In this document: piece by piece, positions 28,876-49,700 of the stretch | How the letters are laid out: each line of letters begins with the position of its first letter | How positions within the stretch are numbered: position 1 is the first letter of the stretch | Origin: Novosphingobium sp. ZN18A2 | GTDB taxonomy: Bacteria > Pseudomonadota > Alphaproteobacteria > Sphingomonadales > Sphingomonadaceae | DNA length: 64,000 nucleotides | Assembly (NCBI RefSeq): GCF_036784765.1 | Contig: NZ_CP136651.1 | Coordinates: 682,001 to 746,000, forward strand | Reading direction: 5' to 3' | The notes under the pieces: generated by a model | The model's database searches: none | Seen by the model: the letters and a program-made list of their open reading frames with translations, nothing else | What the model was told of the DNA's origin: nothing | Position numbers and translations under genes: made by a program

Positions 28876-28962
28876 GCGGTCGTGGCGGAACTGGTAGACG
28901 CGCAACGTTGAGGTCGTTGTGGGCGAAAGCCCGTGGAAGTTCGAGTCTTCTCGACCGCACCA
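28876..28962 (+). tRNA. tRNA-Leu (anticodon GAG)
   Basis: An 87-base cloverleaf with encoded CCA. The acceptor stem GCGGTCG pairs with CGACCGC (28952-28958), the anticodon stem CAACG/CGTTG encloses loop TTGAGGT (anticodon GAG, reads CUC/CUU), there is a long class II variable arm (GGGCGAAAGCCC) and the T-arm contains GTTCGAGTC. Its 3' end begins the left border of the genomic island. Confidence 0.93.
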
Positions 28963-29177: not shown

Positions 29178-30815
29178 TCAGTTTACGTAACCAAGCATTC
29201 GTTCCTGGTCGGCCCATTCGACCGGAATGTCAGAACGCAGGAGCGCCTTGCGCGTAAGGGATGCTGGCTGGGTGCCTGTGACAATGGACTCGACGATCCT
29301 GGGGCAAAGCCAGCTGATGCGCAGCAGCTTCGCCATCTGCGTTCGGCAGCGGCCTTTCTGCTTTGCGAGCTGGTTGATCGACTGTCCCGGTGAAGCCAGA
29401 ACCAACTTCTGAACCTCGAACGCATCGGCGAGCAGGCGGATCAGTTTCGGGTCGGGTCGCGTCCCGTCGGGCGATGCATCGATCCTGAGCTTTGCCTCGC
29501 GGAACGGCTTGCGGGCGGGGAGCGGAATACGCCAGCGCAAGGTGTCAGTTGCGTCGAGGCCAAGTACATCGGGTTGCAGCTGGACATCGATTCGGTCGTT
29601 GCCGATGCGCATCGAGGCGATCAGTGATCGCACCGTATCGTCGCGAGAGGATTTTGTGCCGAGCTGGACCGCCAGCAGGTGCGCTTTGGCGAACAGGGTG
29701 CGAAGGCCACTCGCCTCATCGATTGTAGTAATCCTGCGCAGCGCATGCTCGTCATCCAGCAGGGCCGTAAGGTGATCAACCACGTGCATCTCGAGTGCAC
29801 TGCGCCGGAAGCGGGTCGATGGCGGATCTGCAGGGCGAGCAAGATCCTTTCGGGTCTCATAGTAGCTGTAGCGTCGGGTGCCCTTCGATCCATACGTCGG
29901 AACCATTGGCCTGCTCTCGGGGTCAGTCAGAAATCCCCGCAGCATGGCATGCTGCGGATTATTGGTTGGCCGCCTGCGCGGCGGAGCCTTCTCGGCAAGG
30001 CGCATTTGCACGCGTTCCCACAGGTCTTCGTCGACGATCGCCTCGTGCTCGCCGGGATACACCTTGCCCTTGTGCACAATCATGCCGCGGTAGACGGGGT
30101 TCTTGAGGAGGTATAACAAACTCCCGCGGCGGAACGGAATGCCGCCGCGATGCGGCCCGCTGACACGGTGCTGGATCTTGGTGACGATGCCTTCGTCCTC
30201 CAGCTGGGCGAACAGCTGGTTGGCTGATGTGGAGTCGACGTAGCGCCGCATGATAATGCGGACCCGTTCTGCCTCTTCGGCCACCGGCACCAGCTTGCGA
30301 TCGATGACCTGGTAGCCCAGCGGCACGGGCCCGCCCATCCACAGTCCCTTCTTCTTCGAGGCGGCGATCTTGTCGCGAATGCGCTCGCCGGTGACCTCGC
30401 GCTCGAACTGGGCGAAGGACAGGAGGACGTTGAGTGTGAGGCGTCCCATGCTGGTCGTGGTGTTGAACGCCTGCGTCACCGAGACGAAGCTGGCTTCCTG
30501 TGCATCGAGCCGCTCGACGATCTTGGCAAAATCGGAAAGTGCACGGGTCAGCCGATCGACCTTGTAGACGACGATGACATCGACGAGGCCCGCATCGACA
30601 TCGGCGAGCAGCGTCTTCAATCCCGGTCGTTCCATGTTGCCGCCCGAGAAGCCGCCGTCGTCGTAGCGATCGGGAACCAGTGTCCAGCCTTCGTGGCGCT
30701 GGCTCAGTATGTAGGCTTCGCACGCCTCGCGCTGGGCATCGAGGCTGTTGAACTCCTGCTCGAGCCCGTCCTCGGTCGACTTGCGGGTATAGACCGCGCA
30801 GCGCAGCGTCTTCAT
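29178..30815 (-). CDS. Large serine recombinase (site-specific integrase)
   Basis: A 545-residue recombinase. The N-terminal resolvase catalytic domain has YTRKS with catalytic Ser13, DDGGFSGGNMERPGLKTLL, DVIVVYKVDRLTRALSDFA and SFAQFEREVTGERIRDKI. A recombinase domain follows (GPVPLGYQVIDRKLV ... LLYLLKNPVYRGMIVHKGK), then a zinc-ribbon-like and C-terminal DNA-binding region with an HTH-like AKQKGRCRTQMAKLLRISWL. It should catalyse integration or excision of the island beside attL. Its start overlaps the DUF2924 stop (ATGA), so it is coupled to the two small genes before it. Confidence 0.92.
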   Translation of the reverse strand: MKTLRCAVYTRKSTEDGLEQEFNSLDAQREACEAYILSQRHEGWTLVPDRYDDGGFSGGNMERPGLKTLLADVDAGLVDVIVVYKVDRLTRALSDFAKIVERLDAQEASFVSVTQAFNTTTSMGRLTLNVLLSFAQFEREVTGERIRDKIAASKKKGLWMGGPVPLGYQVIDRKLVPVAEEAERVRIIMRRYVDSTSANQLFAQLEDEGIVTKIQHRVSGPHRGGIPFRRGSLLYLLKNPVYRGMIVHKGKVYPGEHEAIVDEDLWERVQMRLAEKAPPRRRPTNNPQHAMLRGFLTDPESRPMVPTYGSKGTRRYSYYETRKDLARPADPPSTRFRRSALEMHVVDHLTALLDDEHALRRITTIDEASGLRTLFAKAHLLAVQLGTKSSRDDTVRSLIASMRIGNDRIDVQLQPDVLGLDATDTLRWRIPLPARKPFREAKLRIDASPDGTRPDPKLIRLLADAFEVQKLVLASPGQSINQLAKQKGRCRTQMAKLLRISWLCPRIVESIVTGTQPASLTRKALLRSDIPVEWADQERMLGYVN

Positions 30816-31234
30816 CCCGACAGACCGAAGAAGCGTGGACCGTTCCAGTGGCCGCCGGTGATGGCCCGTGCAACAGCGGTCAGCGACTTCCAGTGCTTCC
30901 CGTTGTACTCGAACCCGTCATCCAGCACGACCACGGTGTGACCGACCCCATGCCAGTCGCGCACGAGCCGTGTCCCTGGAGTGAGCTTGCGGGGAAGGGG
31001 AGCCTTGTTCGCCGCGTCATCATCTGATGACGCGACGCGTCGCAGAAGTGAACGTGTCGAGCGGTTCAGCCCGCCGAGGCGCTGCTCCTGCAGCTTGTAG
31101 CCGAGACCAAGCCGCAGCAGGTCGGGTGACACGGCCGGAGCAGGCGCGCCATAGCGGCGCACCCACTCCGCCCTCAGCGCATCAGGCGACAGGTCTGCCA
31201 GTCGGGCGAGCGTGAGATAGGCTCTTCTTGCCAT
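30812..31234 (-). CDS. DUF2924 protein
   Basis: A 140-residue protein starting at ATG 31234, overlapping the DUF3489 stop (TGATG). It carries LADLSPDALRAEWVRRYG and LLRLGLGYKLQEQRLGGL in the first half, and the C-terminal beta-rich LTPGTRLVRDWHGVGHTVVV, FEYNGKHWKSLTAVARAITG of DUF2924. That last part looks like a small DNA-binding or structural module. The family recurs between DUF3489 and serine recombinase genes, so a role as recombination directionality or accessory factor is a fair guess, not demonstrated here. Confidence 0.85.
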   Translation of the reverse strand: MARRAYLTLARLADLSPDALRAEWVRRYGAPAPAVSPDLLRLGLGYKLQEQRLGGLNRSTRSLLRRVASSDDDAANKAPLPRKLTPGTRLVRDWHGVGHTVVVLDDGFEYNGKHWKSLTAVARAITGGHWNGPRFFGLSG

Positions 31235-31596
31235 CAGGCTGCACTGCCTTCTGTTGGCGTGCTCTGCTTGTCCTGCACCATCCTGTAGATGGACGTGCCG
31301 TCCTCGTGCTTCTCGCGCTTGATGGTCTTTCCCTTCTTGCGCAGGCCGGTGAGGAAGGCACGGCAGGTGTGGGGCAGCCAGCCGGTTGCCTCGCACATGG
31401 CGTCGAGTGTCGTGCCGCCCGTATGTGCGAGCAGGGCCTCGACCGATGCAGCCTTGGTCTGCGGCCTGGCTGACGGCTCAGAGGTGGCTGTAGAGGACTG
31501 CGGCGCGCTTGCCTGGTTGGTCGCTGCTCCTTCGGGTTCACGGGCCATGCGGCGCGGGCGGCGGCTTACGGGCTTGGTCTTCGTGGTATCGGACAT
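31234..31596 (-). CDS. DUF3489 protein
   Basis: A 120-residue protein starting at ATG 31596 with GGAGAA upstream. The first 50 residues are low-complexity and basic (SRRPRRMAREPEG and Ser/Thr/Ala-rich). The rest is a winged-helix-like domain: KAASVEALLAHTGGTTLDAM, CEATGWLPHTCRAFLTGLRK, KGKTIKREKHEDGTSIYRM. That pattern (HTGGxTLxxMxxATGWxxHxxRxxLxG) is DUF3489, likely DNA-binding. It leads a three-gene coupled row with DUF2924 and the recombinase. Confidence 0.85.
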   Translation of the reverse strand: MSDTTKTKPVSRRPRRMAREPEGAATNQASAPQSSTATSEPSARPQTKAASVEALLAHTGGTTLDAMCEATGWLPHTCRAFLTGLRKKGKTIKREKHEDGTSIYRMVQDKQSTPTEGSAA

Positions 31597-31828
31597 AGGG
31601 TGGTTCTCCGTTCCGGGAGCAGCACCATGCTGCTCCCACCACCCGAAGCCCCGCCGGTTGCGCCGGTCAGGGCGGCGGCCCGTCATCCGGACCGCGATTC
31701 ATGTCCATGACCAATGCTCAGGTCCGCGACGAAGTCCAATGGAATGTCCGCTTGGTCGGACACTCCGGAACGGCAGGTTAGGAGCCTTGGTGGCGGAAAG
31801 CTGTCACTAGATCCCGCGTTCGCGCTAA

Positions 31829-32236
31829 TCAGCCGCGCCGGAAGAACCTGGCTACTCGTTCAATCCAGTCACCGATCCTTTGTGCCCAAGATGTCTGTTG
31901 ATAGGGTTTGAGATCATTGCGGCGAACTGCCTCGATCTCGGATTGCGAAAAGCTTCGGGCCCAGTGAACCCTGCCTTCAGTCAGAACGTAGTGGGATCTG
32001 CAGTCTAGATTCCAGTTCCCCACTGAGGGGTGCAGGGATGGTCGATCGTCGGTGCCAGTTAGGTCCCATTCGATGTCGTTCAGGGGGGTCATGACACGTT
32101 GGCCACATCCGCACGCGCAGAGGTGATGGGCTCGTGTTCCCTTCTGGTTGACGTAAAGCGTGCCGACTTCGAGGCGCTCGGGAATCGGACCGCGCGACAC
32201 CACGAAGGTTTCGATACGACGAGAGGGTTCATTCAC
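31829..32236 (-). CDS. DUF6527 protein of the ubiquitin-like operon
   Basis: A 135-residue protein. The GTG at 32236 is chosen because it overlaps the E1 gene end (GTGAATGA); no better start exists. The core has HHLCACGCGQRVMTPL (Cys40, 42, 44), RPSLHPSVGNWNLDCRSHYV (Cys79, His82) and LTEGRVHWA, which match what I know of DUF6527. The cysteines and histidine could form a zinc site. The family occurs with multiubiquitin and ThiF genes, and I recall it being linked to bacterial ubiquitin-like (Bub) operons as a candidate peptidase acting on the conjugate. That role is recall plus context, not shown by this sequence. Confidence 0.8.
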   Translation of the reverse strand: MNEPSRRIETFVVSRGPIPERLEVGTLYVNQKGTRAHHLCACGCGQRVMTPLNDIEWDLTGTDDRPSLHPSVGNWNLDCRSHYVLTEGRVHWARSFSQSEIEAVRRNDLKPYQQTSWAQRIGDWIERVARFFRRG

Positions 32237-33413
32237 GGTCGAGCTGCATGGTGGAGATGGTGAGCGTGGCCTGGGAGGTGGAATGCCCACCAGCGTAATA
32301 GCCCCGATACTTCTTGTACATGAGTACGGCCATAGCCGCGTTTAGGGCGTTTAGCTCTACCGTCTGGATGTTCTTCTGGTACTCGTCGGGAATGTCGATC
32401 AGATTGTCGCCGATCACCTCGGCAATCACGTCGGCAGAACTAGCCGTGTCGAGAAGAGTCGTATCCACCATGCCTGTGAGGCCCGGATTGCCGTGGTGCA
32501 GTCCCATACCGACAATCACAACTGGGATTTCGTGCGCGAGGAGTAGTTTGGCGATCTCTCGGCGGGCGGCGATCTTGTCGACGGCGAGGAATGCGAAGGT
32601 CACGCCATCAAGAAGATCCCACGACCTGCCATCAAGCTTTTCCTCGATCGCCTTCGTACCCTTATGCCAGTTGGCATAGCGCTGCTCGATCACTCGAACT
32701 TTCGGCTGCCCGAGTTCTTCGCGATGGGTCGCACCAGGGATGCGGAACGCATTGTGGATATCGAACGCGTCGAAATCGTAAAGGCGGATCGCTTTGACCC
32801 GCGTCTTTGAAATCAGATCAAAGATGTACGATCCAGTTCCACCAGCGCCAATGATCGCGACTGTGTCTTCGGCAAGGAGCCTGTCTAGCTCACTGAGGTT
32901 CGCGCGAGCCGAGTTCATATCATCAAACGGGAACGGGCAATCCTCGTCAACCTGTCCGATGTCAGCGAAGGGTGCCACCTTGAACCGGGGATGCTTCGCC
33001 TCGGCAGGTCCGGAGACATAGAAAGCATACTCCGTGAACTTCTCTTCGAGGCTAACATATTCGCGCTTGGCCCCGTCATCGCCTAGCGGCTTCCACGACC
33101 AGTAGAACGACGAGGACTTGCCATCAAAAAGCGGAACCACGCTCGCCCCATTTCCGCTGAACAGGATACGCCCCTCATGATCGTAGGGTTGGTCGCCGAT
33201 GAAATACATTTGGTGGTTCATCGGCTGGGTACGCGCTTGACCATCTGCGTCCTGGTTAATGGTATCGACCATCAGCCCGGTACGCGGTTCGCCAGAAGCG
33301 TCGAGATATGGAACTGGCATGACCAGGTAAGGACCGCGTCGGTAGAGCGCGAACCCCGCATCAAGCAGCCGTTGGATGCTGCCATCCTCTGACGAAGGTA
33401 ACTTCTGCATCAT
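32229..33413 (-). CDS. E1-like ThiF-family adenylyltransferase
   Basis: A 394-residue protein with AAGAAGG six bases before the start. Residues 1-160 are an N-terminal domain unlike ThiF (probably DUF6791). Residues 183-390 are a ThiF/E1 adenylation fold: VAIIGAGGTGSYIFDLI (nucleotide loop at 189-195), LYDFDAFDIHNAFR with the conserved Asp/Asn/Arg, QPKVRV lysine and FLAVDKIAARREI. It should activate the ubiquitin-like protein encoded 17 bases upstream by C-terminal adenylation. Oddities: the only cysteine is Cys159 in EDCPFP, just before the adenylation domain; there is no CxxC zinc pair and no separate E2 gene nearby. Single-copy operon member, coupled to DUF6527. Confidence 0.88.
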   Translation of the reverse strand: MMQKLPSSEDGSIQRLLDAGFALYRRGPYLVMPVPYLDASGEPRTGLMVDTINQDADGQARTQPMNHQMYFIGDQPYDHEGRILFSGNGASVVPLFDGKSSSFYWSWKPLGDDGAKREYVSLEEKFTEYAFYVSGPAEAKHPRFKVAPFADIGQVDEDCPFPFDDMNSARANLSELDRLLAEDTVAIIGAGGTGSYIFDLISKTRVKAIRLYDFDAFDIHNAFRIPGATHREELGQPKVRVIEQRYANWHKGTKAIEEKLDGRSWDLLDGVTFAFLAVDKIAARREIAKLLLAHEIPVVIVGMGLHHGNPGLTGMVDTTLLDTASSADVIAEVIGDNLIDIPDEYQKNIQTVELNALNAAMAVLMYKKYRGYYAGGHSTSQATLTISTMQLDRE

Positions 33414-33430
33414 CCCGTACCTTCTTGATG

Positions 33431-33700
33431 TCAGGACTGGCCAGTGCCGGTCACGGTGAAATCCATGCCTTCGACAACCTCGATCGAACCGCCCGGCTTG
33501 AGCTTGGCTGACGCGTTGCCGTGGCCGCGGTCGTATGAGATGCGGTACCCGTCTGCCGGGTTGGCGCCGACACCGAAAGCCAGCTTCACCAGTTCGTCGA
33601 ACGAGATTTTGCCCTTGGGAACGGTATGGGTCGTGTCATTGACTTCGATGTCGACAGTCTTTGCCGCCTTGCCGTCCGCTCCAGAGTTGTGATCGTTCAT
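33431..33700 (-). CDS. Ubiquitin-like protein (single multiubiquitin-family domain)
   Basis: An 89-residue beta-grasp candidate with AAGGAAAAAGGAA right before the ATG. After a short polar lead, residues 15-85 read TVDIEVNDTTHTVPKGKISF, DELVKLAFGVGANPADGYRI, then SYDRGHGN and KLKPGGSIEVVEGMDFTVTG, the pattern of the multiubiquitin family (PF14452) in a single copy. The C-terminus is TGTGQS: a Gly followed by two extra residues, so maturation by a peptidase would be needed if the Gly is conjugated. It sits between the DUF2188 gene and the E1 gene, whose start follows after 17 bases. Confidence 0.82.
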   Translation of the reverse strand: MNDHNSGADGKAAKTVDIEVNDTTHTVPKGKISFDELVKLAFGVGANPADGYRISYDRGHGNASAKLKPGGSIEVVEGMDFTVTGTGQS

Positions 33701-33739
33701 TTCCTTTTTCCTTTTCTAATCGGTGTGGTGTGGAATAGG

Positions 33740-33967
33740 TCACCCCTTCGGAGGAAAGGGATCGTTGCCGTAGGAATTCGAGTCGCGGATCCGACCATCG
33801 GGCCGATGGATCACGACTTCACCAGCGCCGCGAATCGCACGACCGCGAGCGGCATCGATCGCGCCTGATTGGGTCGTATGGGTGCTGGCCACCCGGCTGG
33901 CACCTTCGCGACGGGTCGCCCACGCACCGTTGTGGGGCACGACATGGATGCGCTTGCCATTGCTCAT
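33740..33967 (-). CDS. DUF2188 protein, first gene of the ubiquitin-like operon
   Basis: A 75-residue protein. ATG 33967 is preferred over the longer frame because AGAGG lies upstream and the domain starts at once: KRIHVVPHNGAWATRREGAS, TQSGAIDAARGRAIRGAGEV and VIHRPDGRIRDSNSYGNDPF, a clear DUF2188. Function unknown; the fold is small and often found in stress or phage-linked contexts. It is separated from the ubiquitin-like gene by 39 bases and leads the operon, next to the operator region at 34021-34112. Confidence 0.8.
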   Translation of the reverse strand: MSNGKRIHVVPHNGAWATRREGASRVASTHTTQSGAIDAARGRAIRGAGEVVIHRPDGRIRDSNSYGNDPFPPKG

Positions 33968-34020
33968 TGCTTCAACCTCTTTAAGGCGGGCTTGACCCGC
34001 TACAGTTCGTATGTCTATGT

Positions 34021-34112
34021 TGACGAACACGTCATTTTCTGTCACGGCGATCAACGATGACGCCTCAGCAGGCATTTGACGAAATCGTCATTAACTATAT
34101 ACGGAATCGTCA
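34021..34112. promoter_or_regulatory. Divergent promoter with TGACGA-type operators
   Basis: Three related 14-base sites lie in the gap between DUF2188 and the XRE gene: TGACGAACACGTCA (34021-34034), TGACGAAATCGTCA (34077-34090, perfect palindrome with AA centre) and a degenerate copy at 34099-34112 ending TCGTCA on the XRE start codon. For the XRE gene, TTGACG (34076-34081) and TATACG (34098-34103) are spaced 16, placing the transcript start near 34110 and suggesting a leaderless message. The first site lies 54 bases upstream of DUF2188, where a minus-strand promoter would be. Repressor binding at all three is inferred. Confidence 0.65.
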
Positions 34113-34426
34113 TGAACGAGTCAAGCTCGGAAACCGTGTTTGGCACGCGGCTCAAGGAAGCGCGCGAAAGGCAGGGGCTTAGCCAAGCCCAATTAGCGGA
34201 TCGCGCCGAGATGCAGCCATCCGCGATCGCTCACTTCGAGGCGAATCGTCGTAAACCCTCATTCGAAAATGTGCGCCGCCTGGCGACAGCACTCGGCGTA
34301 TCGTCTGATTACCTATTGGGTGTGCAAGCGACGGTCGCCTTCCGGAACGAGGACAAGCTCACCGCAGGCGACAGGGACTATATCCAAGGTCTGATCGACC
34401 GGTTAGCAGGAGCAGGTAAGCCCTGA
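34112..34426 (+). CDS. XRE-family helix-turn-helix repressor
   Basis: A 104-residue regulator. ATG 34112 is chosen over the longer frame because the HTH begins soon after: FGTRLKEARERQGLSQAQLA, DRAEMQPSAIAHFEANRRKP, SFENVRRLATALGVSSDYLL, a textbook XRE/Cro-CI domain. No ribosome site is seen, consistent with a leaderless transcript. The C-terminal ~35 residues are a short tail. It is followed 1 base later by the ImmA/IrrE protease gene. Such repressor-protease pairs (ImmR/ImmA, CapH/CapP, DdrO/IrrE) release target genes on DNA damage. The likely target is the divergent ubiquitin-like operon. Confidence 0.9.
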   Translation: MNESSSETVFGTRLKEARERQGLSQAQLADRAEMQPSAIAHFEANRRKPSFENVRRLATALGVSSDYLLGVQATVAFRNEDKLTAGDRDYIQGLIDRLAGAGKP

Positions 34427-34427
34427 G

Positions 34428-35315
34428 ATGCCGGGACAGTTCCGACTTCTGATGGCGACCCAAACCGGCCAGAAGCGGGCGCGGGATGATGGCTACAATG
34501 CCTTTCCCGTCGACCCCTTCGCGATCGCAGCGAAGCATGACCTACATGTCGAGCAGAAACCGGCCGGGATGCCGGGCGTGTCCGGCGCCCTCATCTTTGC
34601 AGATCCTAAGCCGATCATTATTTATTCCGCCGAACTTGAGAATGAGGGGTTCGAGCGATTCAGCGTGGCCCATGAATTGGGTCATTATTTCCTGCCCGAC
34701 CATCCTGACGAGATACTGAAGGCTGGGGGGCAGCATTTTTCGCGGGCCGGATTTTCGGAAGGGTCCAGCTCGATCGAACTCGAAGCGGACCATTTCGCTG
34801 CCGGGCTGCTGATGCCAGGCGATCTGGTGCGCAGAAATCTCGACCAGCATCAGGTAGGTCTCGAAGGCATCTGCCGACTGGCCGAGGACGCCCGCGTCTC
34901 CCTCACCGCCGCCGCGATCCGGGCGGCTGAATGCGCCTCCTTTCCCCTCTGTATTATCGTCAGCAGCGGCGCGGAGGTTCGTTACGCCTTTCCCTCTCGC
35001 GCCTTCAAAGCACTCGGCAAACGCATCTTTCTCAGGAAGGGTGAGCCTCTGCCCTCCGGCGTGACGGCGTCCTTCAACTCGCGCCCCGAGAATGTGATGG
35101 CTGCCCGTCGTGTGACGGGCGAATCTGACCTCATGGATTGGTTCGATACCGACCGCCGCGTGCACCTCGACGAAGATGTGATAGGGCTTGGTCGATACGG
35201 ATTCACTCTCACCGTTCTGTCGTCGGAGGCCCTCCTCGAACCCGATGATGAAGATGAAGATGACGAGGAAGCGATGAATGATAGCTGGACGCCACGTTTC
35301 GCTTATGGACGCTGA
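34428..35315 (+). CDS. ImmA/IrrE-family metalloprotease
   Basis: A 295-residue protein, start 1 base after the XRE stop with AGGAGCAGG upstream. The zinc motif HExxH is AHELGHYF (residues 82-86), the third ligand is in IELEADHFAAGLLMP (about Glu119). A C-terminal domain of about 150 residues has a GAF-like or sensor character (FPLCIIVSSGAEVRYAFPS) and a very acidic tail (EPDDEDEDDEEA). It is expected to cleave the neighbouring XRE repressor when activated, for example by ssDNA, as CapP does. The C-terminal sensor ligand is unknown. Confidence 0.88.
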   Translation: MPGQFRLLMATQTGQKRARDDGYNAFPVDPFAIAAKHDLHVEQKPAGMPGVSGALIFADPKPIIIYSAELENEGFERFSVAHELGHYFLPDHPDEILKAGGQHFSRAGFSEGSSSIELEADHFAAGLLMPGDLVRRNLDQHQVGLEGICRLAEDARVSLTAAAIRAAECASFPLCIIVSSGAEVRYAFPSRAFKALGKRIFLRKGEPLPSGVTASFNSRPENVMAARRVTGESDLMDWFDTDRRVHLDEDVIGLGRYGFTLTVLSSEALLEPDDEDEDDEEAMNDSWTPRFAYGR

Positions 35316-35429: not shown

Positions 35430-36146
35430 TCATCTATACCATCGCGCCTCCTGCGGCCAATCTTTGTACTTCGTGGGACCTAGTGATCCGCTCGCACTAA
35501 TCACCTCGGCAACTGCCTTTCGCCATCCGGAACTGTTGTCCCCCCACATGAATTGGCTTGCGTAGAGATGCACATCGGCAAGCTGGATCATCCTGCTATG
35601 ATGTGACTTCGCGAAGTGGACGGTGTCTATGAGATTGGCGATGCCTTTGCCTCTAGCCCAACGCGTACTGCCTCGTCGGAACTCCGATAGGTTAGCCACG
35701 GAGGTGCCGATTGCGGGTTCGTCGTAGTCTCCGAACAACATACCGAGCGAGGATTTCGCGCGAAGCAACTCGTCCGACTTTTCAACGAAAAACATGAACG
35801 CGATATCTGCAGGTGAGTCGCTCGAATGGGTAATGTTCGCGGGGTTTACCTTCACGCGGATAAGCATAACTTCCTCTCGCGCGATAATCGTGAGAAGCTC
35901 CTTGAGCAGCTCAAGCCGTTCGCCAAAATCCCGCCCCTTGAAATTGCCCTTCCCTCGGCAAAGCTCGATCCCGTGGATCTCCGTCTCTTTACTCAACACC
36001 GCCGAGCCGAATGCACGTTCCGCGATCGCGCTGATCTGAGCTTCGATCTCAGGCACCAGCTCATGCGAGACGCACACGCCTCCTAGCCAGTAGGAAGGCT
36101 GCTCGGGTGGAGAGTGCTTCACTTCGTCGTAGTAGATTAGGTGCAC
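35430..36146 (-). CDS. DUF3800 protein
   Basis: A 238-residue protein beginning MHLIYYDEVKHSPPEQPSYW, where the early acidic residues are typical of DUF3800 (a predicted RNase H-like fold). Later marks are KETEIHGIELCRGKGNF, a MLFGDYDE segment and the C-terminal SRMIQLADVHLYASQFM. DUF3800 proteins are frequent in mobile and defence-rich regions; a nuclease activity has been proposed from the fold, but I know of no reaction assigned. It converges on the ImmA gene. Its base composition looks less GC-rich than the chromosome, fitting acquisition. Confidence 0.75.
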   Translation of the reverse strand: MHLIYYDEVKHSPPEQPSYWLGGVCVSHELVPEIEAQISAIAERAFGSAVLSKETEIHGIELCRGKGNFKGRDFGERLELLKELLTIIAREEVMLIRVKVNPANITHSSDSPADIAFMFFVEKSDELLRAKSSLGMLFGDYDEPAIGTSVANLSEFRRGSTRWARGKGIANLIDTVHFAKSHHSRMIQLADVHLYASQFMWGDNSSGWRKAVAEVISASGSLGPTKYKDWPQEARWYR

Positions 36147-42062: not shown

Positions 42063-43745
42063 ATGGCGAGGGCTATGCCAACGATAAGGGTAATGGGGCG
42101 AGCGCTCGTGGTTGGGGGAATTTTGCTAGGGGCCAGCACTGGCCTGCGTGCTCAGACTGCGCCGAGCCCGGGGACGATCCTGAAGCAAAGCACTCCGCCG
42201 CCGCCTTTGCCGACGGCGCCAGACAGCGTCCTCAAACTGCCCGGGCCTTCGCAGCAGTCGGCAGATGATTCCACACCTATTCCGGTTACGCACATCGAAT
42301 TAACCGGCAATAGCCTTATCTCCAGCAACCAACTGAAGCCGCTGGTCCAGGGCCTGGAAGGGCGCACCGTCACCCTTGGTGCGCTTCAGCTGGCCGCTCA
42401 ACGCATCACGGCACTGTATCAGGAGCGAGGTTATCCGCTGGCGCATGCCTTTGTTCCAGCGCAGACCATAACCAAGGGGGTGGTCCGTATCGAGGTGGTG
42501 GAGCCACACTATGATCGCATCGACATAGACGACCATAGCCGGCTCAGAATGAGCCAGGCCAAGAGCACATTGGGATTGAGTGCGGGTTCGGCCATTGCGC
42601 AAGGCGGGCTGGAACGCGGTCTGCTACTGCTCAATAGAACGCCCGGTATTCGTGTGGCCGGCACCTTGGTGCCAGGTGCGCAACCTGCGACCAGTACCTT
42701 GCAAGTCAGGATCGACAATACGCCACTGCTGCACGCGGCTTTTTACTCGGACAATTATGGCAACGATTCGACCGGACGCGCGCGTATTGGCGGCAGCCTC
42801 AGCCTGGACAACCCCTTAGGCCATGGCGCCCAGCTGACGCTTAATGCGCTGACCAGCACAAACGGGTTGCTGCATTCGTATGGATTCAGCGTCACCTCGC
42901 CAGACCTGTCGAACGGTCTGCGTGCAGGCGCTTACGGTTCGCACACCGATTATCGTCTCGGTGGTGACTTCGCCGCGCTGGAAATGAGCGGTCGTGTCAG
43001 GCAGGTCGGTGCCGATCTCGACTATCCATTGCTGATGGCACCCGGGCGGTTGATTGGGCTACGCTTGGACGCACTGCATAATGACTTCGCGCAGCGCAGC
43101 GGTGTGCTGGCAACTGACAGCCGCTGGCATATCAATCTGCTGAGGTTGAGTCTTAATGGTGCCTTCGCCGATTCCGGCGGCGGTCTGACTTCGGGCGGAC
43201 TTAGCATCAGCCGCGGCGTACTGGGTCTGGACAGTGCCGATGCACGCAACGCCAACAACACCGGGATAGGTGCGCCGGGCGAATTTTGGGTCGGACAGCT
43301 GTTGCTGCAACGCGATCAGACACTGCCGCTGGGCTGGAACCTTACAGTACGCTTCAGCGGGCAACTGGCCTCGCGCTCACTGGACGGTAGCGAGCAATTC
43401 TATCTCGGCGGCCCCTATGCAGTGATGAGTGCGCCGGCCAACAATGGAGGTGGCGACGACGGTGTTCTGCTGGACGCGCGCATTATGCACCCGATCCCCG
43501 GAATCCACACCGGAAGGCTGCAAGGGGGGGGGATGATCCAGTCGGGCAAGGTCTGGCGGCGCTCCAATGCCGGCACGGCTGGCGACGATCAGCACCTGAC
43601 CGGTGCCGGTCTGATTGTGGACTATCAATGGCAGCGCACGGTCAACGCTAGCCTGGCCTGGTCACATCCGATTTGGGAATCCCGCTCTGGAAACGGCGGC
43701 AATCCGCGCAATGAACTGTGGGCCCGGCTCACGGTCAACTTCTGA
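42063..43745 (+). CDS. TpsB two-partner secretion pore (ShlB/FhaC/HecB family)
   Basis: A 560-residue outer-membrane protein. The signal peptide is MGRALVVGGILLGASTGLRAQ (a start at 42075 is also possible), followed by a Pro-rich plug-like stretch and a POTRA domain (VTHIELTGNSLISSNQLKPL, ITALYQERGYPLAHAFVP, GVVRIEVVEPHYDRI). The barrel ends in ELWARLTVNF with terminal Phe. It exports the adhesin encoded 19 bases downstream by recognising its TPS domain. Gene order sulfotransferase-tpsB-tpsA suggests one operon. Confidence 0.92.
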   Translation: MARAMPTIRVMGRALVVGGILLGASTGLRAQTAPSPGTILKQSTPPPPLPTAPDSVLKLPGPSQQSADDSTPIPVTHIELTGNSLISSNQLKPLVQGLEGRTVTLGALQLAAQRITALYQERGYPLAHAFVPAQTITKGVVRIEVVEPHYDRIDIDDHSRLRMSQAKSTLGLSAGSAIAQGGLERGLLLLNRTPGIRVAGTLVPGAQPATSTLQVRIDNTPLLHAAFYSDNYGNDSTGRARIGGSLSLDNPLGHGAQLTLNALTSTNGLLHSYGFSVTSPDLSNGLRAGAYGSHTDYRLGGDFAALEMSGRVRQVGADLDYPLLMAPGRLIGLRLDALHNDFAQRSGVLATDSRWHINLLRLSLNGAFADSGGGLTSGGLSISRGVLGLDSADARNANNTGIGAPGEFWVGQLLLQRDQTLPLGWNLTVRFSGQLASRSLDGSEQFYLGGPYAVMSAPANNGGGDDGVLLDARIMHPIPGIHTGRLQGGGMIQSGKVWRRSNAGTAGDDQHLTGAGLIVDYQWQRTVNASLAWSHPIWESRSGNGGNPRNELWARLTVNF

Positions 43746-43764
43746 ACGCCACGGGGGAGTTCAC

Positions 43765-46700
43765 ATGAACCATAGGCACCAACCGACCCGCAATCGATTC
43801 AGTGACGCTGTGATCCGGGCAACCGAGGTCAGCCGCAACAGGGGCTACATCAACGCGCGTCGCTTCAGATTGAACCGGATTCGGCTGGCGCCGCTCGGCG
43901 CATTGGTACTGGGGGTCATTCCTAGCGTTGCACATGCGGCCCCCGCAACTGGCACGATTCAGTCAGTCGCGGTGTCCCCTAACTCCACGTCAGTCGGCAT
44001 CCAGGGTGCTGTTTCCCCGCCAGTGATGCCGCTGCCAACCGGTGCGAACGTGGTCAGCGGCCAGGCCACTGTAAATCAAACCGGCGGCACTCTGACGGTC
44101 GACCAAGCCAGCCAGAACGCGATTATCAACTGGCAATCCTTCAACATAGGAAGCGACAACACCGTCATATTCAATCAGCCGAACATCACTTCGGTCGCAT
44201 TGAACAGAGTGCTGGGAAGCGATCCGAGCGCGATCTTTGGCCACCTGAATGCCAATGGACAGGTGTTTCTGGTCAACCCGAACGGCGTCTATTTCGCTCC
44301 GGGCGCCCAGATTGACGTTGGCGGCATTGTCGCTTCGACATTGGACATAACCGACCAGGATTTCCTGTCTGGCAAATACCATTTCGCCGGTCACAGCACG
44401 GCAGGCGTGCGAAACGATGGCAGTATCCGTGCCGCCAATGGCGGCTATGTTGCCTTCATCGGCAAGAGTGTCAGCAACAATGGTTCGATTGCCACGCCCG
44501 AAGGCACAACTGCGCTGGGCGCAGGCGGCAGCGTCGACCTGACGCTGGCGAACAACTCGCTGCTCACCTTCAAGGTCAGCAGCAGCGCGCTGAATACACT
44601 GGCGCAGAACGGCGGCGTGATCGCAGCCAATGGCGGCACGGTAATCCTCAGTGCCCAGGCCAAGGATGCATTGCTGCAGACGGTGGTGAACAACACCGGG
44701 CAGATCCAAGCGCAGACGGTGGCCAGCCACAATGGCACCATCGAGCTGCTGGGTGGCGACAGCGGCACGGTGCAGGTGGCCGGCACCTTGGATGCCACCG
44801 CGCCCAATGGGGGCAATGGCGGCTTCATCGAGACCTCAGGCGCGCACCTCAAGGTCGCAGATGGTACCACGATCACCACTAAGGCTGTCAGAGGCGACAA
44901 TGGCCGATGGCTGATCGATCCCGCCGACTTCACCATCGCCCCTACGGGCGGCGACATCACCGGCGCGGCGCTCTCTGCGGCGCTGGCCAGTACCAGCGTC
45001 ACCATCCAGACCAGCATCACCACGACCACCGGCAGCTTCGTCAACTGCACCGGCATCAACTGCGGCACCGGAAACAATGCCGGCTACAACGATATCATCG
45101 TCAACGATACGGTGAGTTGGAGCGCCAACACGCTCACGCTGAACGCCTACCGCAACATCGTCATCAACACGGCAATGAACGCCTCCGGCACGGCCAAGCT
45201 GGCGCTGCTGTATGGCCAAGGCTCAATCAACGGCGTGATCGGCGGCGTTACCTCTGACTACATCGTCAACGCGCCGATTAATCTGGAAGCCGGACCGAAC
45301 TTGTCAACCAGGCTCGGCACCGGCGGCAGCGCGGTCACCTGGACCGTCATTACCAGCCTGGGCTTGGCTGGCGATGCCAGCACCACGCCGGGCACGATGA
45401 CACTGCAAGGTGTGACGGCCAGCAGCCTGACCGGAAACTACGCGCTGGGCGCCAATATCGACGCCTCGCCCACGGCCAATTGGAACCCCGACGGATTTGG
45501 CGGTTATTACGGTTTCGACCCCATTGGAGACGGCAATGGCGGTGCCACCTTTACCGGCCGGTTCGATGGGCTGGGCCACACCGTCAGCAACCTGACTACG
45601 GTCGCCCGCTACGCATTCGCGGCAAGCCTATTCGGCTATACGAGCAACAGCGCGATCCGCAACATCGGCATGTTGAACGCCAACGTCACCGGCATCCGCT
45701 ATGCCGGCGGATTGGTCGGCTACGCCATCGGCGGCAGCATCGATAACGTGTATGCCTCCGGCACGGTCAAAACGACATCGACCAATGACACTGTCGGCGG
45801 ACTGGTTGGCGTCAACAGTGGCACCATCAGCAACGCCTACGCCACCGGCAGCGTCAGCGGCAGTACCAATGTCGGCGGGCTGGCCGGTCGGAACAGCGGC
45901 ACCATCAACAACGCCTATGCTACCGGCAACGTCAGTGGCGTCTCCGAGGTCGGCGGTCTGGTCGGATTCAATCTGGGTTCTGGCAGTAAGATCACCAACG
46001 CCTACGCTATCGGCGACGTGACCGGCACCGGCATCCGTATCGGCGGACTGGTGGGATTCAGCACCAACGGTGCGATCAGCAACGCCTATGCCACCGGCAA
46101 TGTCAGCGGCGGGTCCACGGTCGGTGGGTTGCTCGGGCTTGCCTACAACGGCACGGTGAACAACGTCTACGCCACTGGAGCTGTCAGCGGCAGCAGCACG
46201 GTCGGCGGTCTGGCTGGAAGCAACAGCGGCAGCACGATCACCAACGGCTACTGGGACATCACGACCACCGGCAAGGGCACAAACGCTGGCTACGGCGCTC
46301 TTTCCGGTACGGTGACGGGCGGCGGCGGGCTGACCACAGCGCAGTTGACCGCGGCCCTGCCCTCGGGCTTCACCTCCAGCAACTGGGCCAACGCCGGCAA
46401 CCAGACCACGCCGTACCTGCTGACCAATACCAGCTTCCAGACCGTCAGCGGCGCAGTTCTGCTGGGCACTGACACCAGTGCCTCACCGACGCAATACCGG
46501 GTGATCACCAACGTCACCCAGTTGCAGAACATCAACAGCACCGGGGTGAACCTCGACTACGTGCTGGGCAACAGCATCGGCGCCTCGGCCACCGCCGGCT
46601 GGAACGGCGGCGCGGGCTTCACGCCGATTGGCACGGCCTCCACCTCCTTTACCGGCAGCCTGGAAGGTCTGGGCTACACCATCAGAAGTCTGTACATTCA

Positions 46701-49700
46701 CCAATCCGGCTCCGGCAATGACGGCTTCGGCCTGTTTGGAACTATCGGCAGCGCTGGCGCGGTGAGCAACCTGGGTCTGGTCGGCGGCAGCATCACCGGC
46801 AAGTCCTATACCGGGGCACTGGTCGGCAACAACGCCGGCACCATCAGCAATGTTTACTCCACGGCCAGCATCAACGGCCAGGTCGGCACGAATGTCGGCG
46901 GACTCGCCGGCTATAACGCCGGCACCATCAGCAACGCCTACACCTCCAGCATCATCAGCAACGGCGGCACCAACACCGGCGGACTGGTCGGCTATAACGC
47001 CGGCACCATCAGCAACGCCTATACGACCGGCAACGTCACCGGCCTGAGTTCCAGGACCGGCGGACTGGTCGGATTAAACACCGGCACCATCGGCAACGCT
47101 TACGCCACCGGCAATGTCCAGGGCGACACCAATGCCGGCGGACTGGTCGGCGGTAACATCGGCACCATCAGCAACGCCTACGCCACCGGCGACGTCACCG
47201 CCAACTACGACGCGGCGGGCGGACTGATCGGGATCAATAGCTCGGGCTCGGTCATTAACGTCTATGCCACCGGCAAGGTCAGCCTAAACTCGAGTTACTC
47301 CGGTACAAAGCTCGGCGGGGTGCTCGGCGTCAGCTATGGCGGTAGCTACTCGAGCGTCTACTGGGACACCACCACCAGTGGCACCACCAACAGTGGTGGT
47401 GCCGGCAACGGCCTGACCACCGCGCAGCTGGCCTCTGCCCTGCCCTCGGGCTTCAGCAGCAGCTTGTGGGCCAACGCCGGCGGCCAGACCACGCCGTACC
47501 TGCTGGGCAACACCGACTTCGAAAGTTACAGCGGCTCGGTGATCTTGGGTACAGATACCAGCGCTACGCCAACGCTGTACAAAGTGATCACCCGCCTCAC
47601 CCAGCTTCAAAACATCAACAGCACCGGGGTGAACCTCGACTACGTGCTGGGCAATAACATCGACGCCTCGCCCACCGGCAGCTGGAACGGTGGCGCAGGC
47701 TTCGAGCCCATTGGCAGCAATGGCAACGCTTTCAGCGGCGTATTCGATGGCCTGAGCTTCGCCGTCAGCGACCTTACCATCAACCGGCCGTCCACCAATT
47801 TTGTGGGGCTGTTCGGTAGGGTGGGAAGCGGTGGCGTGGTGCGCAATATCGGTATCATCGGAGGCAGCATCACCGGCAAGGGTTACGTGGGCGGTCTGGT
47901 GGGCAGTAACATTGGTGGTTCAGTCAGCAATGCCTATGCGACTGGCCCGGTCAGCGGTACCTCACCCGTGGGTGGGCTGGTCGGATATTCCAGCGGATCG
48001 ATCAGCAACGCCTATGCCAGCGGTAGCGTCAGCGGCACCGATGGTCTCGGTGGACTGGTCGGCGTGAACGTTGGAGTCATCACCGACACCTACGCCACCG
48101 GAAGCGTCCGCGTCAGCGGCAGCGCCCTCGCATATGGCATCGGTGGCCTGGTTGGAGCGAACAGCACCAACGGTCAGATTATCAATGCCTATGCCAGTGG
48201 CAGCGTCACCGGCAACGGCAGCCTCGGCGGGTTGGTTGGAGCCAACTTCAATGGCAGCGTCACTAATGGGTATTGGGACACCACCACCGGTCTCACCTCT
48301 GGTTTTGGCAACAGCAACGGAACCGTCACTGGCGGCGGCGGCCTGACCACGGCACAGCTGGCCGCAACTTTGCCCACTGGCTTCGCCTCAAGCGACTGGG
48401 CCAACGCCGACAACCAGACCACACCATACCTGCTTGCCAACACCAGTTTCAATACGATCAGCGGATCGGTATTCTTGGGTACTGACACCAGCGCGACACC
48501 GACTCAGTACAAGGTGATCACGAGCGTCACCCAGCTTCAGAACATCAACAGCACGGGCCTTGGCCTCGACTACGTATTGGGCAACAGCATCGACGCCTCG
48601 GCCACCGCCGGCTGGAACAACGGCGCGGGCTTTGTGCCGTTCGGCAACAACTACTTCACCAACGCGTTTACCGGCGTCTTCGACGGCTTGGGTTTCACCG
48701 TCAGCAACCTTACCGTCAATCGGCCGTCCGCCAGCTATGTGGGTTTGTTCGGCGTGGTCGGCAGCGGCGGCGTAGTACGCAACATCGGCGTCATCGGCGG
48801 AAGTTTTACCGGCTCCTACTCTGTAGGCGCTCTAGTCGGCGCCAACCTAGGCACTATCTCTGACGCATACGCGACCAGCGGCGTCACCGGCAATGCCCTC
48901 GTCGGCGGCTTGGTCGGCCTGAACACCAATGGGGCGATCATCAACGCCTATGCCACCGGCAATGTCACCGGCTCCGGCGCCAACCAAGAAGACCTCGGCG
49001 GTCTGGTCGGCTACAACTCGAATGGCTCGATCAGTAACGCCTACGCCACCGGCAACGTCACCGGCAAGTGGCAGATCGGCGGCTTGGTCGGGCTGAGCTC
49101 CAATAGCTCCACGATCAGCGATGTCTATGCTCTCGGCAATGTCAGCGGCACCAATGAGGTCGGTGGATTGGTCGGCTCCAATACAGCGGACTCCACCATC
49201 ACCAACGCCTATGCCACCGGCAGCGTCAGCGGCACCAATAAGGTCGGCGCGCTGGTCGGGATGAACTCGAACGGAGCGGTCATCACCAACGGTTACTGGG
49301 ATACCAGTACGGGGCTCGGCACTGGGATTGGTAGCAGCAACGGCGGCGCCGTAACCGGGGGCGGCGGCTTGACCAGCACGCAAATGATGCAGCAGGCAAG
49401 CTTCACCGGATTCGACTTCAGCTCTCCGGTGTGGGTGAACTACAGTGGCCACACCGCACCACTGCTCAACGTGTTCCTCATCCCGCTCACGATCACTGCC
49501 GACAACCAGGGCCAGACATACAACGGCGGCACTTTCGGGCTGCTCAACCCGAGCTATTCGGTGGCAGGCGCGGATACGTCAGGACACCTGTTCGGTCTAG
49601 GTGACGCGTACAATGGCGCAGTCAATGTCGGCAGCTATAGCCCGGATCTGTGGTCGGATCAGCAAGGCTATCGTATTGCTTACGTGGGCGGCGCCCTCTC

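What the first reader, a model, noticed from the sequence alone, without database searches (positions are those of the whole stretch)
31829..35315. Ubiquitin-like conjugation operon under a repressor-protease switch
A minus-strand row DUF2188 - ubiquitin-like protein - E1-like ThiF - DUF6527 faces an XRE repressor plus ImmA/IrrE protease across 145 bases. Seen: the beta-grasp-type small protein, GAGGTGS loop in the E1, CxCxC and CRSH in DUF6527, HELGH in the protease. Known: XRE plus ImmA-type proteases control phage lysogeny, ICEs, the DNA-damage response (DdrO/IrrE) and CBASS (CapH/CapP); bacterial ubiquitin-like pathways act in anti-phage defence. Inferred: this is a damage- or phage-inducible ubiquitin-like defence system on an island. 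The minimal gene set with a DUF2188 leader appears uncommon.
Basis: partly seen in the sequence, partly recalled or inferred. Interest (0 to 1): 0.9.

Follow-up and report, generated by a model that had tools for sequence, protein, structure and literature searches.

The report
Damage-inducible ubiquitin-like operon, E2-less branch
A mobile bacterial gene island carries a ubiquitin-like tagging operon of a known but little-studied kind behind a DNA-damage switch, and the small gene at its head (DUF2188) turns out to sit at the head of several unrelated immune operons that use the same switch.

Summary
The window holds a tight minus-strand operon, DUF2188 > single ubiquitin-like protein (Multi_ubiq) > E1-like enzyme (DUF6791-ThiF) > DUF6527. 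It faces a CapH-type repressor and a CapP-type protease across 144 bp with two matching inverted repeats. The set is not unique. It belongs to operon class 6e of Iyer 2006 and is related to the recently crystallised Bub (bacterial ubiquitination-like) pathway, whose operons are often controlled by CapW or CapH+CapP. About 5% of family genomes and over 100 plasmids carry this E1 type.

It differs from characterised Bub. There is no recognisable E2, DUF6791 replaces the JAB peptidase, the E1 has no conserved cysteine but an invariant tyrosine, and the ubiquitin-like protein ends in a strictly conserved serine (28 of 29), not glycine.

The unexpected result concerns DUF2188. It is the first gene of CapHP-controlled operons with unrelated payloads: both Bub branches, Pycsar, CBASS and the MBL/E1-E2-JAB system, and once no detectable payload. 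So it tracks the damage switch, not the ubiquitin-like genes.

The locus lies at a tRNA-Leu integration hotspot. Anti-phage activity, conjugation and damage induction are inferred, not shown.

The parts
33740..33967 (-). DUF2188 protein, 75 aa, first gene of the operon
   Evidence: PF09954 5.7e-23; PADLOC PDC-S16 6.1e-31
33431..33700 (-). Single-domain ubiquitin-like protein, 89 aa, ends VTGTGQS; C-terminal Ser conserved in relatives
   Evidence: PF14452 9.8e-9; alignment A3; last residue Ser in 28 of 29
32229..33413 (-). E1-like enzyme, 394 aa: DUF6791 domain (about 13-165) plus ThiF/E1 domain (about 175-394), invariant Tyr345, no conserved Cys
   Evidence: PF20590, PF00899; alignment A1; AF2 model pLDDT 85, best PDB matches Citrobacter BubCD, 9eav E 5.7e-14
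31829..32236 (-). DUF6527 protein (BubE-like), 135 aa from GTG 32236, overlapping the E1 stop; CxCGC, PS and CxSHY motifs
   Evidence: PF20137 9.1e-24; invariant C58 C60 G61 C62 P88 S89 C97 H100 Y101 in the 153-aa numbering
34112..34426 (+). CapH-type XRE repressor, 104 aa
   Evidence: HTH_3 5.6e-17; PADLOC capH 8.4e-25
34428..35315 (+). CapP-type ImmA/IrrE (M78) protease, HELGH motif, 295 aa
   Evidence: M78 5.8e-13; PADLOC capP 2e-62; PDB CapP 7t5t 7.7e-14
34021..34034 (.). Operator-like inverted repeat TGACGAACACGTCA
34077..34090 (.). Operator-like inverted repeat TGACGAAATCGTCA, same half-site
   Evidence: Two same-half-site inverted repeats arise in 8 of 5000 Markov sequences
28876..28962 (+). 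tRNA-Leu(GAG); synteny with same-genus genomes stops at its 3' end
29178..31686 (-). Serine recombinase, DUF2924 and DUF3489 genes next to the tRNA; likely the mobile-element end
   Evidence: Resolvase 2.1e-37, DUF2924 1.9e-43, DUF3489 2e-18

Best explanation
A Bub-related (operon class 6e) ubiquitin-like protein activation operon of the DUF6791 branch, held off by a CapH repressor and switched on when CapP cuts CapH after DNA damage, in which DUF2188 is the switch-associated first gene. Proposed order of events: CapH sits on the two inverted repeats and blocks both promoters (inferred). ssDNA from damage or phage replication activates CapP, which cleaves CapH (shown for other CapHP, inferred here). 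DUF2188, Ubl, E1 and DUF6527 are then co-expressed. The E1 adenylates the ready-made C-terminal serine of the Ubl, so no JAB trimming is needed, and may pass it to its own Tyr345 as an oxyester and from there to targets, with DUF6791 taking the place of an E2 as docking domain (inferred). DUF6527, with its conserved Ser-His pair, acts as a processing or removing enzyme (inferred).
For: Domain calls for all six proteins. The closest solved relatives of the E1 model are Citrobacter BubCD, and a Citrobacter plasmid homologue encodes Multi_ubiq+E2_E, JAB+ThiF and DUF6527 in that order. Class 6e in Iyer 2006 describes this set, including a subset with an uncharacterised N-terminal domain in place of JAB (PMC1779556). 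Bub operons are often under CapW or CapH+CapP (PMC13373217). CapP here matches solved CapP. Two same-half-site inverted repeats lie in the 144-bp gap. In all DUF6791-type E1s Tyr345 is invariant and no Cys is; PDB titles use BubCD Y370F, and the homologue has an invariant Tyr just before the same helix. Ubl C-terminus ends in Ser in 28 of 29, whereas JAB-type Ubls end in Gly or short tails after Gly.
Against: No expression, cleavage, conjugation or phage data. Own genome has no Prok-E2_E. DUF6791 does not match E2 or JAB profiles or any PDB sequence. The Y345-Y370 equivalence is positional: profile alignment puts Y345 on a different, non-invariant tyrosine. The DUF6527 model has no PDB match. 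The two E1 branches are separated by very long branches, so mechanism may not carry over.
Confidence: 0.68

Rival explanations
1. The E1-like enzyme modifies the C-terminus of the Ubl (adenylation, as MccB and PaaA do with peptides) and makes a signal or a small product, without attaching it to proteins.
For: No E2, no E1 cysteine, C-terminal Ser instead of Gly; profile and fold searches also find MccB and PaaA.
Against: Ubl, E1 and DUF6527 are shared with the Bub operon, where BubA, BubB and BubCD have been crystallised together (titles), and the best fold matches are BubCD.
Confidence: 0.2
2. DUF6791 is a diverged E2/RWD-like domain, so the protein is an E2-E1 fusion and conjugation follows the ordinary E1-E2 order.
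For: Predicted order of elements is helix, four strands, long loop, helix, as in the E2 fold; Prok-E2_E and DUF6791 share a short N-terminal pattern.
Against: Profile comparison with Prok-E2_E is not significant (probability 2% or less); no conserved Cys, Ser or RWSRH motif in DUF6791.
Confidence: 0.35
3. The operon serves a general DNA-damage or stress response and not anti-phage defence.
For: PMC13373217 states that Bub operons have not been shown to protect against phage and may mediate stress responses.
Against: The same CapHP-DUF2188 head precedes Pycsar and CBASS, which are phage-defence systems; the locus sits at a mobile hotspot.
Confidence: 0.35
4. DUF2188 is a subunit specific to the ubiquitin-like system.
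For: Adjacent to the Ubl gene in both Bub branches.
Against: DUF2188 is also first gene of CapHP operons with Pycsar, CBASS and MBL/E1-E2-JAB payloads and once without a detectable payload.
Confidence: 0.05

Closest known systems
Operon class 6e (Iyer, Burroughs and Aravind 2006, PMC1779556)
   Same: Ubl repeats, E1-like enzyme, metal-motif protein; the paper notes a subset with an uncharacterised N-terminal domain in place of JAB
   Different: Ours has one Ubl domain, no E2-like domain, and adds DUF2188 and CapHP, which the passage read does not mention
Bub pathway, Citrobacter BubA/BubB/BubCD (PDB 9ea4, 9ea5, 9ea8, 9eae, 9eav)
   Same: Multi_ubiq Ubl, ThiF-type E1, DUF6527 as last gene; tyrosine near the crossover helix
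   Different: [quoted passage not shown] E1s form two clades with long stems
CapH/CapP switch (7t5t CapP)
   Same: XRE repressor plus M78 protease divergent from an immune-type operon
   Different: Cleavage site and operator not tested here
CapK/CapS followed by YegP (PMC13373217)
   Same: A small protein gene placed directly behind a damage-responsive switch, with or without an immune payload
   Different: YegP is DUF1508; profile comparison gave no homology to DUF2188
Bil (BilABCD)
   Same: Bacterial Ubl conjugation with E1
   Different: Bil has E2 and JAB, and BilD has a catalytic Cys (PMC11354881); none of these here

Membership tests
Operon class 6e | Multi_ubiq-type Ubl gene next to an E1-like gene | tested here: met
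Operon class 6e | JAB or the alternative N-terminal domain fused to the E1 | tested here: met
   DUF6791 at the E1 N-terminus; alternative domain described in PMC1779556. That DUF6791 is that domain is inferred
Operon class 6e | Protein with the Cys/His metal-type signature | tested here: met
   DUF6527 CxCGC and CxxH invariant; spacing and order differ slightly from the printed signature
Bub pathway (as crystallised) | E1 related to BubD | tested here: met
   Profile-profile 99.6%, E 1e-23; Foldseek top hits
Bub pathway (as crystallised) | E2-like BubB (Prok-E2_E) | tested here: not met
   Absent from the locus and from the whole genome
Bub pathway (as crystallised) | BubC JAB domain on the E1 | tested here: not met
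   DUF6791 instead; no profile similarity to JAB
Bub pathway (as crystallised) | DUF6527 as last gene | tested here: met
Bub pathway (as crystallised) | Catalytic Tyr (Y370 in Citrobacter) | tested here: inconclusive
   Invariant Tyr345 just before the same helix, but alignments do not superpose the two; the catalytic role of Y370 is read from PDB titles
CapH/CapP switch | Repressor and protease of the CapH and CapP families, divergent from the operon | tested here: met
CapH/CapP switch | ssDNA-triggered cleavage and operator binding | not testable with these tools
   Only operator-like repeats shown
Bil system | E1 with catalytic Cys domain plus E2 and JAB | tested here: not met
Anti-phage defence system | Reduces phage infection | not testable with these tools
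   No data; published Bub operons not shown to do so

The most novel reading that the evidence does not exclude
DUF2188 is a general component of damage-inducible bacterial immune operons: a small protein made first when CapHP (or CapW) switches on, whatever the payload, acting for instance as a sensor, brake or helper shared by CBASS, Pycsar, MBL/E1-E2-JAB and Bub operons. Alongside it, the DUF6791 branch is an E2-less ubiquitin-like pathway that uses a Ubl with a ready-made C-terminal serine.
Probability: 0.5. Interest if true: 0.65.

Novelty: new variant of a known kind. Interest (0 to 1): 0.5.

Why it matters
If right, the DUF6791 branch is a natural simplified ubiquitin-like pathway (no E2, no trimming peptidase, no E1 cysteine), which would make the minimal chemistry of ubiquitin-type tagging testable in a four-gene operon. 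The repeated position of DUF2188 behind one damage switch, in front of unrelated immune systems, points to a shared component of inducible bacterial immunity that I found described in no paper of the library searched (PADLOC lists it only as a single-gene candidate).

Tried and rejected
DUF6791 as E2 or JAB by profile comparison: no significant match; by PDB sequence search: none; by Pfam at E up to 10: only DUF6791 itself. DUF6527 fold against PDB: no match below E 0.001. DUF2188 as a relative of YegP/DUF1508: not supported. A direct repeat of the tRNA 3' end as right island border: none in the window, so the right border is not defined. Phage carriage: no E1 relative in the phage collection; three clear relatives in IMG/VR contigs not examined further. 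Promoter and terminator scans were no better than shuffles. The key Bub, Bil and CapHP papers are not held in the library, so what Bub papers say beyond the EMBO J 2026 text rests on PDB titles or memory and is marked so.
Full report
What is there. The window region 31829-35315 holds a minus-strand operon, DUF2188 (33740-33967), a single-domain ubiquitin-like protein (33431-33700), an E1-like enzyme (32229-33413) and DUF6527 (31829-32236), facing a CapH-type repressor (34112-34426) and a CapP-type protease (34428-35315) across 144 bp. Gaps inside the operon are 39 and 17 nt, and the DUF6527 GTG at 32236 overlaps the E1 stop codon, so the four genes are probably co-translated. Pfam, PADLOC and PDB searches support every family call.

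Relatives. The DUF6791-ThiF enzyme was found in 22 of 401 genomes sampled from the family and 8 of 399 from the phylum and on 115 plasmid records, none above 60% identity to ours. In 28 fetched loci the Ubl and E1 genes are always adjacent, and DUF6527 follows in most. Regulators vary: divergent CapH/CapP pairs, a fused repressor-protease (L050), WYL/CapW (Acidiphilium plasmid), or a protein of about 1130 aa with M78, UvrD helicase and PD-(D/E)XK nuclease domains directly upstream. The nearest relative of our E1 is 81% identical, in Tsuneonella rigui; the next is 41%, so recent transfer is likely.

What family. Iyer et al. 2006 (PMC1779556) described operon class 6e: Ubl repeats, an E1 usually fused to JAB but in a subset to an uncharacterised N-terminal domain, an inactive E2-like domain, and a Cys/His-motif protein. 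A homologue of the crystallised Citrobacter Bub operon has exactly Multi_ubiq+Prok-E2_E, JAB+ThiF and DUF6527. The AF2 model of our E1 (mean pLDDT 85) finds Citrobacter BubCD as best PDB matches (E 5.7e-14). Our locus is therefore class 6e and Bub-related, but not a full member of the crystallised Bub type: the E2 is missing from the locus and from the whole genome, and DUF6791 replaces JAB. A tree of E1 domains separates the JAB type and the DUF6791 type fully (100/100 support on each side of a very long stem). I could not learn whether the published set of 544 Bub operons includes the DUF6791 branch.

Chemistry. Across 28 DUF6791-type E1s no cysteine is conserved, while the nucleotide-site residues and Tyr345 are invariant. 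PDB titles include BubCD Y370F in complex with BubB and BubA, and JAB-type E1s have an invariant Tyr just upstream of the corresponding helix. I infer that Tyr345 plays the same part, but the profile alignment does not superpose the two residues, so this is open. From memory, not checked, the Bub paper reports oxyester rather than thioester intermediates. The Ubl ends in Ser in 28 of 29 relatives, with Thr at the fourth-last position in 26 of 29, and the stop codon follows at once. JAB-type Ubls end in Gly or in short tails after Gly, and the crystallised Citrobacter fragment BubA(155-229) would end at Gly229 in the C. braakii homologue. A ready-made C-terminus would explain why the JAB peptidase can be absent; this is inference. 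DUF6527 keeps an invariant Ser89 and His100 plus four cysteines (numbering from the GTG at 32290), and the Citrobacter homologue keeps them too. Its model (pLDDT 88) has no PDB relative. DUF6791 matched no E2, JAB or PDB sequence; its predicted element order resembles the E2 fold, which is a lead only.

Switch. CapP is matched at 7.7e-14 to the solved CapP and 2e-62 to the PADLOC model. Published work states that ssDNA activates CapP, which cleaves CapH, and that 219 of 544 Bub operons have CapW or CapH+CapP (PMC13373217). The 144-bp gap carries TGACGAACACGTCA (34021-34034) and TGACGAAATCGTCA (34077-34090). Two inverted repeats with one half-site arise in 8 of 5000 Markov sequences. Some relatives also carry repeated palindromes of their own in this gap (L042, L057).

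DUF2188. Of the 30 best DUF2188 loci in the family, 23 have a CapH and/or CapP gene within the fetched flanks, 18 of them both. Of the 30 best capP loci from 331 genomes, 13 have DUF2188 nearby, in most cases as the first gene across the divergent promoter. With about one or two CapP-like genes per genome and DUF2188 in 70 of 401 genomes, I estimate chance adjacency well below 1%. Some loci are near copies of each other, so independent events are fewer than the counts. The payloads behind it differ: DUF6791-type Bub (window, L036, L049, Sagittula plasmid L199), JAB/E2-type Bub (L145, L146, Rhizobium plasmid L111), Pycsar (L133; L134 and L135 have the same 525/240-aa pair by length and layout), CBASS (L128 with TRIP13, L130, L131, L140, Mesorhizobium plasmid L202), MBL-type E1-E2-JAB with patatin (L129; Ruegeria plasmid L200 by annotation), one with unassigned genes (L132), and one with no evident payload (L195). 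In Synechocystis B12 a DUF2188 reading frame lies between a WYL gene and a JAB/E2-type Bub operon. DUF2188 therefore goes with the damage switch. This parallels the report that CapK/CapS is followed by YegP in 57 cases, although DUF2188 and DUF1508 show no detectable homology. Not all DUF2188 genes fit: Klebsiella plasmid copies lie elsewhere, and 7 of the 30 family loci show no CapHP.

Island. Same-genus genomes share the left flank up to the 3' end of tRNA-Leu at 28962 and then differ; one has the same type of recombinase-DUF2924-DUF3489 set a few kb further on. G+C drops from about 0.66 to 0.54-0.60 across 31-42 kb. The right border was not found.

Verdict. A new variant of a known kind. 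The part I consider new is the DUF2188 pattern and the combination of no E2, no JAB, no E1 cysteine and a serine-ended Ubl in the DUF6791 branch.

Noticed in passing
L033, L034, L037, L054, L055, also L032 (split); UvrD gene in L114: A protein of about 1130 aa with M78 (ImmA/IrrE) peptidase, UvrD helicase and PD-(D/E)XK nuclease domains lies directly upstream of the Ubl-E1-DUF6527 genes in the same direction (domains checked in L034 and L032), possibly an alternative sensor or effector.
   Followed up: partly
L128, L129, L130, L131, L133-L135, L140, L200, L202: CapH-CapP-DUF2188 heads operons for CBASS, Pycsar and MBL/E1-E2-JAB systems.
   Followed up: partly
L132:381-2685: CapHP-DUF2188 followed by two proteins (460 and 312 aa) with no Pfam or PADLOC match: a candidate unknown immune payload.
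   Followed up: no
L195: DUF2188 behind CapHP with no payload evident (a convergent amidohydrolase gene follows).
   Followed up: no
window 42063-51291: Two-partner secretion pair: ShlB-type transporter and a 2558-aa TPS-domain exoprotein with YDG and GLUG repeats.
   Followed up: no
window 35430-36146: DUF3800 gene convergent with capP; not conserved next to the operon in the relatives fetched.
   Followed up: partly
L126:6965-8637: A same-genus genome carries the same recombinase-DUF2924-DUF3489 set near the same tRNA-Leu, marking an integration hotspot.
   Followed up: partly
L049:7811-8311, L056:7989-8450: Ubl proteins with an extra N-terminal region that Multi_ubiq does not match.
   Followed up: no
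L198 (Klebsiella pneumoniae plasmid): DUF2188 on Klebsiella plasmids lies near a DUF2384/RES toxin-antitoxin-like pair and iron-uptake genes, not near CapHP.
   Followed up: no
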